From NCBI GenBank assembly GCA_024276655.1, contig JAJRWU010000011.1:1-41581 (forward strand): a stretch of DNA of 41,581 nt. The letters run 5' to 3'. The first letter of the stretch is position 1, and every line of letters starts with the position of its first letter. Both the position numbers and the translations under genes were made by a program. This stretch comes from Planctomycetota bacterium (GTDB taxonomy: Bacteria; Planctomycetota; Planctomycetia; Pirellulales; Pirellulaceae). Below are positions 4,077 through 9,886 of the stretch, one piece after another. Below the pieces are notes generated by a model. That model was given only the letters and a program-made list of their open reading frames with translations, searched no databases and was not told where the DNA came from.

Positions 4077-4454
4077 ATGCGTTTTTGGCAGCTCGTTTAC
4101 CGAGCCGTGCGTTTACAGTGCCCGCTCTGCGGCCAGACCCGCCTCTTCCGGAATATGTGGCGGATGCACGCCGCTTGTTCTCATTGCGGCTGCGAATATG
4201 AGCGCGAGCGGGGGTTTTTTCTGGGCTCGATCTATTTCAATTACGGTTTGACGGCCCTAATTACGGCCGTTGTTTATCCTCTGCTGCTGTTCAACCAGAT
4301 CGTCGCCGAACGAACGTTGCTGATTGCCGTGGCGGCGTTCGTGTTTCTCTTCCCGGCTTGGTTTTTTCGGTACGCCCGCAGCTTCTGGCTGGCGTTCGAT
4401 GAATTCTTCGATCCTCGCCCCAAGGAAATCGTGGCGGGAAAAAGTGGAGAATGA
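4077..4454 (+). CDS. DUF983 family protein with two CxxC zinc-ribbon pairs
   Basis: A 125-residue protein with CPLCG and CSHCG near the N-terminus (a probable zinc ribbon), the CEYERERGFFLGSIYFNYG stretch typical of DUF983, and two transmembrane segments after it. DUF983 proteins are common beside cytochrome c oxidase genes in alphaproteobacteria and planctomycetes, and their function is unknown. Start ATG 4077 was chosen because the family begins just before the first CxxC and the gene starts 5 bases after the preceding stop. It is the last gene of the oxidase-associated block; a dispersed repeat follows at 4488. Confidence 0.85.
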   Translation: MRFWQLVYRAVRLQCPLCGQTRLFRNMWRMHAACSHCGCEYERERGFFLGSIYFNYGLTALITAVVYPLLLFNQIVAERTLLIAVAAFVFLFPAWFFRYARSFWLAFDEFFDPRPKEIVAGKSGE

Positions 4455-4487
4455 GCAATGGCATGGCGCGGGCAAAAGAGAAAAAAC

Positions 4488-4516
4488 ACGCTGAAGCGTA
4501 CACTCCAACAGCGCGT
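4488..4516. repeat. Dispersed 'GCGTACACTCC' repeat, copy 1
   Basis: CACGCTGAAGCGTACACTCC followed by AACAGCGCG. Near-identical words occur at 11868-11890 and, shortened, at 37899-37919; an inverted relative is at 11829-11842. Because it is an intergenic repeat, an open frame running through it into the HD gene is not taken as coding. Confidence 0.7.
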
Positions 4517-4606
4517 ACGACTGAAAATGACGCCTCGAACGCTTCGGCGAATATTTATGGGTATGTAGGGCTGGGGAAATCCTCGCCGCCGGAGGTAAAA
4601 TGCAAG

Positions 4607-5263
4607 ATGACGCAGCTATCGGTGGTGACGAGAACACGCGATTTTATTCGCGGTAAATTCGAGAACGACGCCACCGGCCACGACTGGTGGCACATCGAAC
4701 GTGTGTGGCGAACGGCGCGCTGGCTGGCCGAACAGGAAGGCGCCGATTTGTTGGTGGTCGACTTGGCCGCCCTACTGCATGACGTGGCCGATTGGAAGTT
4801 TCACGCCGGCGACGAAACTGCTGGGCCGCGCGTGGCCCGAGAATGGCTGGTTGCCGAAGGCGTCGACCCGCCGGTCGTGGAACATGTGTGCGAAATCATT
4901 GCTTGCATCTCCTTCAAAGGCGCTGGCGTGCCGACGCCCATGGCCAGCGTGGAGGGAGAAGTCGTGCAAGACGCCGACCGCCTTGATGCGATCGGCGCTA
5001 TCGGCATCGCGCGAACATTCGCCTACGGCGGTCATGCGGGAAATGTGCTGCACGATCCTCACACGCCGCCGCTGATGCACGCTTCGTTTGCCGACTACAA
5101 GAACAAGTCGTGCTCGACGATCAACCATTTCCACGAAAAATTATTATTGTTGCGCGAGCGAATGAACACCGCCGCGGCTCGTCGATTGGCCGCCGACCGC
5201 CACGCCTTCATGGAGGAATTTCTGAGTCGCTTTGATGAGCAATGGCGTTTTCCGGATGCTTAG
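4607..5263 (+). CDS. HD-domain metal-dependent phosphohydrolase (YedJ-like)
   Basis: A 218-residue protein with the HD superfamily pattern: H in TGHDWWHIERVWRTA, the HD pair in LAALLHDVADWKF, and a distal D in VQDADRLDAIGAIGIARTF. The family hydrolyses phosphate esters, often of nucleotides, using bound metal; this subgroup's substrate is not known. The start is ATG 4607, with GGAGG at 4591-4595. The frame is open further upstream to 4451 but crosses the repeat at 4488-4516, so the longer form is unlikely. It converges with the peroxidase-related gene on the other strand, and the two ends overlap by four bases (5260-5263). Confidence 0.87.
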   Translation: MTQLSVVTRTRDFIRGKFENDATGHDWWHIERVWRTARWLAEQEGADLLVVDLAALLHDVADWKFHAGDETAGPRVAREWLVAEGVDPPVVEHVCEIIACISFKGAGVPTPMASVEGEVVQDADRLDAIGAIGIARTFAYGGHAGNVLHDPHTPPLMHASFADYKNKSCSTINHFHEKLLLLRERMNTAAARRLAADRHAFMEEFLSRFDEQWRFPDA

Positions 5264-5853
5264 TCGGAATATGGTTGCGGCTTGGGCGGGTTTGCGAGTT
5301 GGTCGTAGCCGGGGTCGTCGAGACCGAAGGCGTCGGCAACGCGATTAAAAAAGGCGAACATGGCCGTGATGTACACCGCTTCGGCCACTTGCGGTTCGCT
5401 CCAGCCGGCGGCGCGCAAACGCTCGATATCGTTGGGTCCGCAGCGGTGGGAGTGCAGGGTCAGGAGTTCGACCAGCTTGAGCAGTTCGCGCTCGGCGGGA
5501 GAAACGGGGGCGGCGTCAAGTTCTCCACGCCGCAGCGCCTCGACCACGGCCAGGTCTTCGTCCTGCAACTGCAGGAACATTGCGTGGGCGCCGAGTCAGT
5601 AACGGCATTTGTTCAAAGCCGAAACAAAGGTCGCGATCCGCTCCTTGGTGCGGCGGTCGAGATGCCCATCGGTGAAATGGACACGGTTCGAAAACGTGAT
5701 CACGTCGCGAAGGAAATCGGGGCGGTGGCTAAAGCACTTCAAAATACCGGGAATTTCGCTGCGTTCTGGGTTGTGCGAGAACCATTCTTCATACGTCTGC
5801 GACAACGCGCCGGTTGCCTGTTGTTCGTTGATCCATTCTATTTGGGGCGGCAT
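5260..5853 (-). CDS. AhpD-like / peroxidase-related protein, candidate selenoprotein (in-frame TGA read as Sec)
   Basis: Carboxymuconolactone decarboxylase/AhpD superfamily protein, expected to be a thiol or selenol peroxidase-type enzyme. The frame is continuous from ATG 5853 to TAG/TAA-side end 5260 apart from TGA at 5596-5598 (minus strand codon 86). The text around it reads NKCRY-[TGA]-LGAHAMFLQ, where relatives have CxxC followed by GAH. Reading TGA as selenocysteine gives C83-x-x-U86 and His90, exactly the family's redox and proton-relay residues, and a normal length of 197 residues. A perfect hairpin (UCCUGCA/UGCAGGA, 5561-5576) has its apical loop about 27 nt after the TGA, with G near the loop start, as in bacterial SECIS elements. 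The second half shows no decay. An alternative TTG start lies at 5934; ATG 5853 (MPPQIEWI) fits the family better, though its ribosome binding site is weak. A pseudogene or a sequencing error remain possible. Confidence 0.8.
5561..5576 (-). promoter_or_regulatory. bSECIS-like hairpin inside the AhpD-like coding region
   Basis: Perfect 7-base arms, TCCTGCA and TGCAGGA, around GT on the minus strand. The apical loop lies about 27 nt after the in-frame TGA, inside the window (roughly 16-37 nt) expected for SelB-bound bacterial elements. If the top A-U pair opens, the loop is AGUU with G at its second position. Confidence 0.6.
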
Positions 5854-6084
5854 GGCGGTCGTGGGGTAAGAGGTTTGATTTTGGATGGCCGGTGCAGAAA
5901 GGAAAAGTATGAAGCGGCGCGGGGAACATTTCAAGTTCCCCGCGACCTGTGCGCAAAAGCGAGCGCGCCTTGCGGTTTGCTATTGGTCTGCGTTCGAGAG
6001 AAGGCGTGGGGATAAGGGTGTTCGGAGAACCGGACGAGGTGCTTGCTTGACAGCACGGAACACCGCTATTACACAGAGGCCCAT

Positions 6085-8467: not shown

Positions 8468-9886
8468 ATGGTCTATGAAATTGCAGAACATTTGAGCGGT
8501 TGGACGTCGCTCGACACCTGGATCGTGATCACGGCGGCGCTGGCCGCGATGGCTTGCGCATTGCCGGGCAATCTGCTCCTGTTGCGGCGTCAAAGCATGA
8601 TGGGCGACGCGCTCAGTCATGTGGCGTTGCCGGGAATCGTGCTGGCGTTTTTGCTCTCGCATTGGCTGCAAGCCGGCGGTTGGATGAGCCGCCAGATGCA
8701 TGAGGCGATTTTGCACCCGATTTTTTTCGCCGGGGCGATGGCCTTGGGCGTGTTGTCGGCGGTGCTCACCGAATGGGTGCAAAAGTTGGGCCGCGTGGAA
8801 AGCAGCGCTTCGCTTGGCGCCGTGTTCACGACGCTCTTTGCACTGGGGCTGTTGCTCATGCGGGCCTTTGCCGACAACGTCGACATCGACCCCGATTGCG
8901 TTCTTTATGGAACCATCGAAACCGTGATCGTCGACACATGGCCGGGCACGAACATTCCTCGCGCCGCGGTCATCAACGGCGCTGCGTTGTTGGGCAATTT
9001 GGCGTTGATCGTGTTGTTCTACAAGGAACTGAAAATTTCGGCGTTCGATCCAGCATTGGCGACCACGCTGGGCGTGAACGCCACCGTCATGCACTATGCT
9101 CTGATGGCGGTCACTTCGGTCACGTTGGTGGCGGCTTTTGAGTCGGTAGGCAGTATCCTCGTGATCGCCATGCTGGTCACTCCAGCGGCCACCGCACACC
9201 TGCTGACCGACCGCCTGAGCAGCATGTTGGGCATCAGCCTTGTGGTGGCGGCGGCCAGTGCGCTGTTGGGACACGCCATGGCGATTGCCTTGCCGCCGGT
9301 GTTTTTTTCCCGCATCGGTTTCCCTGCCGACGTCGGCGCCAGCACGGCCGGCATGATGGGCGTGGCCGTGGGGATATTGCTTGTCGGGGCGGCGTTTTTG
9401 AGCCCTCGCTACGGCGTGCTGAGTCGCTCGGCGCGTCGTTTTCGTTTGCGGTTGCGCATCGTCGCGGACGACATTCTCGGCTTGCTTTATCGTTTGAACG
9501 AGCGCGGGAGCGCCGAACAACCGCGGACGTTTCTACAGATTTTCCGCAGCGCAATGGGCGTCGGCCGGCTGCAAACCTTTATGGCCTTTCGTTGGTTGTG
9601 CTGGCGGGGCGATGTCGCGATTCAGAGCGGGTATTGCTCCTTGACGCCCGCCGGCGAATCGGCCGCCCGCCGCCTGGTTCGCTCGCACCGCTTGTGGGAG
9701 GCGTATGTCGAAAAGCATTTCGGCGTGCCGCAAAGTCAGCTTCACCATTCGGCCGAACGGGCGGAACATTATCTTTCACCTCGTCTGCAAGAAGAGTTGG
9801 CGGGCGAACTGGAGAGCCCGCAACTCGATCCTCACGGCCGGCCGATTCCGAAGCCCGACAACCCGCCGCCCGCCGACGGCGCATAG
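8468..9886 (+). CDS. Metal ABC transporter permease (ABC-3 family) fused to a DtxR-like C-terminal domain
   Basis: A 472-residue protein. Residues about 15-310 form the multi-helix ZnuB/MntB-type permease (GNLLLLRRQSMMGDALSHVALPGIVLAF near the start; AFESVGSILVIAMLVTPAATAHLLTDRL later), which imports Zn, Mn or Fe with an ATPase and a solute-binding protein. From about residue 335 a cytoplasmic winged-helix-like segment begins (LGLLYRLNERG), followed by a DtxR/MntR metal-binding and dimerisation region (RLWEAYVEKHFGVPQSQLHHSAERAEHYL, then LDPHGRPIPKPD). This suggests metal sensing built into the transporter, or a repressor tethered to the membrane. The classical DNA-recognition helix is not obvious. 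No ATPase or binding-protein gene is adjacent within the window. Start ATG 8468; ribosome binding site weak. Confidence 0.9.
   Translation: MVYEIAEHLSGWTSLDTWIVITAALAAMACALPGNLLLLRRQSMMGDALSHVALPGIVLAFLLSHWLQAGGWMSRQMHEAILHPIFFAGAMALGVLSAVLTEWVQKLGRVESSASLGAVFTTLFALGLLLMRAFADNVDIDPDCVLYGTIETVIVDTWPGTNIPRAAVINGAALLGNLALIVLFYKELKISAFDPALATTLGVNATVMHYALMAVTSVTLVAAFESVGSILVIAMLVTPAATAHLLTDRLSSMLGISLVVAAASALLGHAMAIALPPVFFSRIGFPADVGASTAGMMGVAVGILLVGAAFLSPRYGVLSRSARRFRLRLRIVADDILGLLYRLNERGSAEQPRTFLQIFRSAMGVGRLQTFMAFRWLCWRGDVAIQSGYCSLTPAGESAARRLVRSHRLWEAYVEKHFGVPQSQLHHSAERAEHYLSPRLQEELAGELESPQLDPHGRPIPKPDNPPPADGA

What the first reader, a model, noticed from the sequence alone, without database searches (positions are those of the whole stretch)
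5260..5853. AhpD-like protein with an in-frame TGA in a CxxU motif and a bSECIS-like hairpin
The gene is open across a single TGA at the exact position of the family's second redox Cys (C83-R-Y-U86-L-G-A-H). The sequence after the TGA is fully conserved, and the frame is not disturbed. A perfect hairpin has its loop about 27 nt downstream, the placement expected of bacterial SECIS. AhpD-like selenoproteins with CxxU have been described, as far as I recall, mainly from metagenomes; this would be a planctomycete example. SelA, SelB and tRNA-Sec are not in this window.
Basis: partly seen in the sequence, partly recalled or inferred. Interest (0 to 1): 0.85.

Follow-up and report, generated by a model that had tools for sequence, protein, structure and literature searches.

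The report
Planctomycete AhpD-like selenoprotein gene
A planctomycete gene for an AhpD-like redox enzyme very probably reads one UGA stop codon as selenocysteine in its active site; this is a sound new example of an already listed kind of bacterial selenoprotein.

Summary
Minus strand 5853-5260 encodes a 197-residue AhpD-like protein, open except for TGA at 5598-5596, exactly at the second redox Cys (C83-R-Y-U86). Of 61 related loci found in named genomes, 57 have TGA, 3 TGC and 1 GGG at this codon. SelA passes its cut-off in 55 of 57 close TGA genomes and 1 of 4 Cys genomes. A 6-bp hairpin with loop AGUU starts 25 nt after the UGA. In this one sequence it is not beyond chance, but its codons are frozen across relatives (synonymous identity 0.97; mean 0.46), and none of four Cys homologues keeps it. 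The protein matches TIGR01926, already listed with CxxU in a 2026 selenoproteome review (PMC13188914). So it is a new member of a known kind; Sec insertion and peroxidase or reductase activity are inferred.

The parts
5260..5853 (-). AhpD-like selenoprotein gene, 197 codons plus TAA (5262-5260); TIGR01926 type, CMD (PF02627) domain
5596..5598 (-). In-frame TGA read as selenocysteine 86 (CxxU motif C83-R-Y-U86)
5561..5576 (-). bSECIS hairpin: 6-bp stem UCCUGC/GCAGGA, loop AGUU (5570-5567), loop starts 25 nt after the UGA
5641..5643 (-). Codon of Glu71, the first residue of the AhpD-type proton relay (E71-C83-Y85-U86-H90)
   Evidence: invariant column in 18 rows; relay residues from PMC3141380

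Best explanation
The gene encodes a selenocysteine-containing AhpD-like enzyme. During translation, SelB with Sec-tRNA(UCA) binds the hairpin 25 nt downstream of the UGA and inserts Sec at residue 86 instead of terminating. The Sec replaces the second Cys of the AhpD CxxC motif. Together with Glu71, Cys83, Tyr85 and His90 it forms the proton-relay active site of the AhpD fold, where it most likely acts as the attacking selenol that reduces a peroxide (or an oxidised partner such as a peroxiredoxin), with Cys83 resolving the selenenylsulfide. Shown here: the reading frame, TGA conservation, Sec machinery in the genome, hairpin conservation, predicted fold and active-site residues. Inferred: actual Sec insertion, which residue attacks, and the substrate. 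The confidence given is for 'Sec-encoding gene'; for the peroxidase or peroxiredoxin-reductase activity I would say about 0.7.
For: Frame open across a single TGA at the catalytic position. Own genome: tRNA-Sec 66.4 bits, ARAGORN tRNA-SeC anticodon tca; SelA 552 bits and SelB 340 bits about 0.4 kb apart on contig C296; SelD 271 bits as an Ndh-SelD fusion. Four further redoxin genes of this genome carry one in-frame TGA at the active-site position, in the contexts UPYC, UPVC, TGGU and LTUPP. TGA in 57 of 61 named-genome loci and in 17 of the 18 genomes of the close clade in a scan of 396 genomes of the order. SelA over cut-off in 17 of 17 close TGA genomes and 38 of 40 further ones; Cys genomes 1 of 4. 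tRNA-Sec at 60 bits or more in 16 of 17 close TGA genomes. Hairpin: 98.8% of 330 cells paired and 3 cells changed on both sides, which 0 of 500 shuffles reach; synonymous identity 0.97 in codons 94-97 against a mean of 0.46 over 93 columns; 50 of 56 TGA loci meet all four bSECIS constraints, while none of the four Cys homologues does. The Cys pair L029/L081 branches inside the Sec clade. Model pLDDT 94.3 (with Cys standing in for Sec); best solved matches are AhpD-like proteins, 6k40 Z 23.1 over 182 residues. Relay positions E71, C83, Y85, 86 and H90 are invariant columns in 18 of 18 rows (86 being Sec in 17 and Cys in 1), with the spacing given for PA0269 in PMC3141380.
Against: No direct evidence of Sec insertion or of activity. 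The hairpin of this sequence alone is not stronger than chance, and 6 of 56 TGA relatives fall short of the -7.5 kcal/mol bound as I evaluated it. Covariation is thin: only 1 of 6 pairs has a change on both sides, a count that 122 of 500 shuffles reach, and slid versions of the structure reach 2 such pairs and up to 4 such cells. One of the two search patterns behind the 61 loci contains FLQLQ, so Cys forms without it are probably under-sampled and 57 of 61 is an upper-leaning figure. The congener G369 lacks a tRNA-Sec hit above 47 bits; 2 of 57 close-family TGA genomes lack SelA over the cut-off; among genomes with a more distant TGA relative 5 of 18 lack it. One Cys genome (Silvibacterium, G438) has SelA and a 70.5-bit tRNA-Sec, so loss of the machinery does not explain every Cys form. 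Nearly all are draft genomes. Rfam finds no SECIS family here. The neighbouring genes give no functional hint.
Confidence: 0.95

Rival explanations
1. The gene is a pseudogene or the TGA is a sequencing error; the protein is normally Cys-containing.
For: Standard ORF calling truncates it; one relative (L084/L032) does show a frameshift near its 5' end.
Against: Same TGA in 57 of 61 loci; dN/dS below 1 on both sides of the TGA; frozen hairpin codons.
Confidence: 0.02
2. UGA is read as Cys or Trp by an opal suppressor tRNA rather than as Sec, or the genome has reassigned UGA.
For: UGA-decoding tRNA-Cys variants are known in some bacteria (recalled, no call).
Against: Full Sec machinery is present and tracks the TGA across genomes; the hairpin is kept in TGA forms and in the one Gly row L103, and in none of four Cys rows; two close relatives appear to end this same gene with TGA (L021, L032), against a general reassignment. 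A suppressor tRNA was not searched for.
Confidence: 0.02
3. It is a selenoprotein, but its reaction is not peroxide reduction: it may be a reductive dehalogenase or a disulfide reductase for another partner, using the same AhpD fold.
For: The debrominase Bmp8 (6ohi/6ohj) is a structural relative, Z 17.2 over 173 residues; Sec is the halogen-attacking residue of thyroid deiodinases (recalled). Close solved relatives are titled mainly 'peroxidase-related', antioxidant or AhpD.
Against: Nearest solved structures (6k40, 2oyo, 3c1l, 2pfx, 2prr; Z 21.7-23.1) are AhpD/peroxidase-related; all five AhpD relay positions are present. No halogenated-compound genes among the nine neighbours scanned. A shared fold shows no function.
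Confidence: 0.2

Closest known systems
AhpD-like selenoprotein family, TIGR01926, CxxU (row in PMC13188914; 'AhpD-like' COG2128, CxxU in PMC1088965 and PMC2398784)
   Same: TIGR01926 match above cut-off (97 vs 81.8 bits; 18 of 18 rows of A1 match it at E 0.001), CxxU with Sec at the second redox position, bSECIS-like hairpin right after the UGA.
   Different: Nothing categorical. Here it is tied to named genomes, 46 of 61 loci with planctomycete titles; Sec is the rule among the loci found (57 of 61). Whether the review's exemplar MCB9421940.1 belongs to this clade was not checked; that COG2128 covers the same proteins as TIGR01926 is recalled.
AhpD-related selenoprotein CFYUT, NF041238
   Same: CxxU motif family; weak profile match (51.2 bits).
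   Different: Far below its cut-off of 175 bits; a separate family.
PA0269 of Pseudomonas aeruginosa and M. tuberculosis AhpD (Cys enzymes)
   Same: Related fold (2ijc/2o4d Z 17.0/16.9; 1gu9/1knc Z 11.3/11.2) and the relay Glu-Cys-Tyr/His-Cys-His (PMC3141380).
   Different: Cys instead of Sec; chains of 144 and 171-174 residues in the solved entries against 197 here.
Bmp8 debrominase (6ohi, 6ohj)
   Same: Related fold, Z 17.2 over 173 residues, 16-17% identity.
   Different: Complexed with tribromopyrrole in 6ohj (title); no test of such activity here.

Membership tests
Bacterial selenoprotein | In-frame TGA aligned with Cys of homologues | tested here: met
   TGA in 57 of 61 loci, TGC in 3, GGG in 1; Cys also in L029; Cys at this place in the four solved homologues aligned
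Bacterial selenoprotein | Host encodes tRNA-Sec, SelA, SelB, SelD | tested here: met
Bacterial selenoprotein | bSECIS: 3-9 nt loop, 4-16 bp stem, G in first two loop positions, loop 16-37 nt after UGA, MFE at or below -7.5 | tested here: met
   Window: loop AGUU (4 nt), 6 bp, spacing 25 nt, -8.7 kcal/mol; model quoted from PMC13188914. Weak specificity: 14 of 175 other codons of the gene also pass
Bacterial selenoprotein | Sec shown in the protein (75Se, mass spectrometry) | not testable with these tools
TIGR01926 AhpD-like (peroxidase-related enzyme) | Score above the curated cut-off | tested here: met
   97 bits vs 81.8
AhpD-like active site | Proton relay Glu / Cys / Tyr or His / Cys(Sec) / His at the AhpD spacing | tested here: met
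   E71, C83, Y85, U86, H90; invariant columns in 18 of 18 rows, position 86 Sec in 17 and Cys in 1; reference residues PMC3141380
AhpD-like active site | Peroxidase activity | not testable with these tools
   needs purified Sec protein
NF041238 AhpD_rel_CFYUT | Score above the curated cut-off of 175 bits | tested here: not met
   51.2 bits
Bmp8-type debrominase | Debromination of bromopyrroles | not testable with these tools
   only fold similarity seen

The most novel reading that the evidence does not exclude
In these planctomycetes the AhpD-like protein and one or more peroxiredoxins of the same cell are both selenoproteins and work as a pair, so that electrons pass from one Sec centre to another (a Sec-to-Sec AhpC/AhpD-type relay), which would explain why this clade keeps Sec with so few exceptions.
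Probability: 0.1. Interest if true: 0.6.

Novelty: new member of a known kind. Interest (0 to 1): 0.3.

Why it matters
It corrects a gene that a plain ORF call cuts in two, and it gives the CxxU AhpD-like selenoprotein, first reported from marine metagenome reads, a set of named genomes in which TGA is the rule among the loci found, including the named strain Tautonia sociabilis GM2012 (L056). The window's genome carries at least five putative selenoprotein genes, so a planctomycete could serve to study why Sec is kept in such redox enzymes.

Tried and rejected
Rfam scan of 5400-5900 for a SECIS family: only two matches, to unrelated families, at E 3.3 and 9.7. Single-sequence folding statistics as proof of the hairpin: rejected, not significant; over 55 TGA loci the mean z against synonymous shuffles is -1.47 and 11 of 55 reach the 5% level. 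The bSECIS constraints alone pass at 14 of 175 other codons of the gene. Covariation as the main proof: thin, because LQLQ is itself conserved as protein; synonymous codon freezing is the better argument. Operon or neighbour argument: of eight neighbouring window proteins searched in the 61 loci, seven match only the congener L048; the ABC ATPase also matches four others at 27-35% identity. Neighbours are HD, chorismate mutase-prephenate dehydratase, SCO1, DUF420, DUF983, ABC and T2SSF genes. Pseudogene and sequencing-error readings: rejected on the relatives. NF041238 membership: rejected, below cut-off. In the structural second look the rows with Z above 4.7 are AhpD/CMD-type entries and sestrin-2; RclX stands at 4.7. 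Paper search for Bmp8, debrominase and deiodinase together returned nothing. One search translated minus-strand loci on the wrong strand; one search replaces it.

Full report
What is there. On the minus strand, 5853-5260, a 197-residue frame is interrupted once, by TGA at 5598-5596, in the motif NKC83RYU86LGAH90. Mechanical ORF listing splits the gene at this codon. The protein matches PF02627 (60.2 bits) and TIGR01926 'peroxidase-related enzyme' at 97 bits against a cut-off of 81.8. It converges with an HD-domain gene on the plus strand (4451-5263), and the two stop codons overlap within 5260-5263.

Sec machinery of the genome. The window is contig C121 of a 5.96-Mb, 328-contig draft (96.14% complete). 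tRNA-Sec: 66.4 bits over a gathering score of 47, and ARAGORN calls tRNA-SeC with anticodon tca. SelA 552.1 bits and SelB 339.9 bits lie about 0.4 kb apart on the same strand of contig C296. SelD 271.4 bits is the C-terminal part of a long frame with a CLGC motif; I read the N-terminal part as NADH-dehydrogenase-like, as in the Ndh-SelD fusions with CxxC described in PMC2398784 (passages), but did not scan it. A search for AhpC-TSA domains in this genome gave 20 matches; four genes have one in-frame TGA each. Read through, the contexts are UPYC, UPVC, TGGU and LTUPPF; the last also matches the iodothyronine deiodinase family PF00837 just above its cut-off (28.5 vs 27 bits). Hairpins with G in the first two loop positions follow these TGAs too, and all four loops hold GU; by my simple evaluation one of the four reaches -7.5 kcal/mol and the others lie between -6.7 and -7.4. 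The genome also has one distant AhpD-like paralogue with an ordinary CNYC motif (C25, 29% identity).

Relatives. Of 396 genomes of the order scanned with the read-through protein, 151 have some match at E 0.001. The close clade (E 3e-28 or better; the next match is 5.5e-19) comprises 18 genomes: 17 with TGA at this codon (one of them, G023, with two copies) and one, G071, with TGC. Many of the more distant matches are Cys proteins without an in-frame stop. A scan of the GTDB species genomes with alignment A1 gave 61 loci: 57 TGA (56 by script, L097 by eye), 3 TGC (L081, L106 Silvibacterium, L107 Granulicella) and 1 GGG (L103). One of its two search patterns contains FLQLQ, so Cys forms are probably under-sampled. 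Of the 61 titles, 46 name planctomycetes, 4 say only 'bacterium' and 11 name Armatimonadota/Abditibacteria, Acidobacteria or Actinomycetota. The congener (95% identical) sits on a 34,750-base contig, the same length as the contig of L048, 'Planctomycetaceae bacterium SZUA-33', so the window is very probably from a planctomycete. In a quick tree of 72 rows the Cys pair L029/L081 lies inside the Sec clade, suggesting Sec-to-Cys change, while the placing of L106 and L107 is unsure because of long branches.

Co-occurrence. SelA over its cut-off: 17 of 17 close TGA genomes, 13 of 18 genomes with a more distant relative that holds one TGA (the TGA was seen at the CxxU place in 9 of these 18; for the other 9 only the stop count was seen), 12 of 34 other genomes of the order (three of them just over the cut-off, 274-280 bits), and not in G071 (70 genomes chosen from the 396). 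In 44 further genomes reached through the named loci: 38 of 40 TGA genomes, 1 of 3 Cys genomes, and the Gly genome. Hence 55 of 57 for TGA and 1 of 4 for Cys in the close family; the split into 17 and 40 rests on matching contig lengths to avoid counting a genome twice. The two TGA exceptions are G410 (no SelA; best tRNA match 46.4 bits) and G434 (a SelA fragment of 54.9 bits at a contig edge and a tRNA-Sec of 75.8 bits). tRNA-Sec at 60 bits or more: 16 of 17 close TGA genomes, G369 lacking it (best 46.5); of the four Cys genomes only G438 has one (70.5), G439 reaching 47.6 and G071 and G419 staying below the cut-off. These are mostly drafts, so single absences mean little.

Hairpin. UCCUGC-AGUU-GCAGGA lies 20-35 nt after the UGA. 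It meets the bSECIS model quoted in PMC13188914 (passages): loop 4 nt, stem 6 bp, G at loop position 2 followed by U, spacing 25 nt, -8.7 kcal/mol. Alone it proves little. Across 17 TGA sequences, codons 94-97 have a synonymous identity of 0.97 against a mean of 0.46 over the 93 columns that could be scored, the highest four-column stretch of the gene; codon 96 is TTG in 17 of 17. Across 56 sequences (55 distinct; the TGA rows without L108, which holds Ns, plus the window; L097 not included), 98.8% of 330 cells are paired, with C-G to U-A in 3 sequences and one-sided changes in four pairs. Cells changed on both sides exceed all 500 shuffles, but the number of pairs changed on both sides does not (122 of 500 reach it) and slid controls reach 2 such pairs and 4 such cells. 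Some relatives change the protein from LQLQ to LRSQ (CUGCGGUCGCAG) while keeping the stem and a GU in the loop, which protein constraint alone hardly explains. Of 56 TGA loci evaluated, 50 meet all four constraints; none of the four Cys forms does; the Gly form L103 keeps a hairpin of -11.7 kcal/mol.

Protein. AlphaFold2, with Cys in place of Sec, gives mean pLDDT 94.3. The best solved matches are AhpD-like or peroxidase-related proteins, 6k40 Z 23.1, rmsd 2.0 over 182 residues, then 2oyo, 3c1l, 2pfx and 2prr (Z 21.7-22.2); M. tuberculosis AhpD Z 11.3; Bmp8 debrominase Z 17.2; sestrin-2 entries 11.7-14.6. PMC3141380 (abstract and passages) gives the relay of PA0269 as Glu36, Cys48, Tyr50, Cys51, His55; at the same spacing the window protein has Glu71, Cys83, Tyr85, Sec86, His90, all invariant in 18 rows apart from the Sec/Cys exchange. 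That the second Cys is the attacking one in AhpD is recalled, not from a call.

Mechanism. UGA at codon 86 is decoded by SelB/Sec-tRNA guided by the hairpin (inferred from anatomy and co-occurrence). Sec86 would attack the peroxide or a disulfide partner and Cys83 would resolve the selenenylsulfide, with Glu71/His90 moving protons (inferred). Substrate and electron donor are unknown; a dehalogenase role is an open rival.

Known or new. AhpD-like CxxU selenoproteins: 27 sequences in the Sargasso data (PMC1088965, passages), 299 'AhpD-like 1' COG2128 and 70 'AhpD-like 2' in GOS (PMC2398784, passages), and a row 'AhpD-like protein, TIGR01926, CxxU' in the 2026 review (PMC13188914, passages). A planctomycete genome paper (PMC4807772, passages) reports Sec use in planctomycetes; its main text has no occurrence of 'AhpD' and its supplement was not seen. 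Other papers were seen as search listings only. The finding is therefore correct but of a listed kind. Interest 0.3.

Noticed in passing
L109-L112 (own genome contigs C238, C6, C196, C190): Four redoxin-type genes with one in-frame TGA each (UPYC, UPVC, TGGU, LTUPPF), the last deiodinase-like; with the window gene, at least five putative selenoprotein genes in this genome. All four hairpin loops hold GU.
   Followed up: partly
L115 (own genome contig C177): SelD is the C-terminal part of a long, apparently NADH-dehydrogenase-like fusion with a CxxC motif.
   Followed up: partly
L103:5001-5525: A relative with Gly (GGG) where the others have Sec, but with an intact strong hairpin, and SelA and tRNA-Sec in its genome; either a draft error or a relic.
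   Followed up: partly
L067, L093, L099: C-G to U-A compensatory exchange in the hairpin stem (CTG..CAG to TTG..CAA).
   Followed up: yes
L036-L047 and other distant order-level matches: A more distant group of AhpD-like genes with one TGA; 5 of 18 such genomes gave no SelA over the cut-off.
   Followed up: no
window 8468-9883 (+): ABC-3 permease fused to an iron-dependent repressor metal-binding domain (PF00950 plus PF02742).
   Followed up: no
window 5260-5263: Stop codons of the AhpD-like gene (-) and of the HD-domain gene (+) overlap tail to tail.
   Followed up: no
L084/L032: Frameshift near the 5' end of the AhpD-like gene in isolate BJ22, real or an assembly error.
   Followed up: partly
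L015 (own genome contig C25): A distant AhpD-like paralogue with an ordinary CNYC motif.
   Followed up: no
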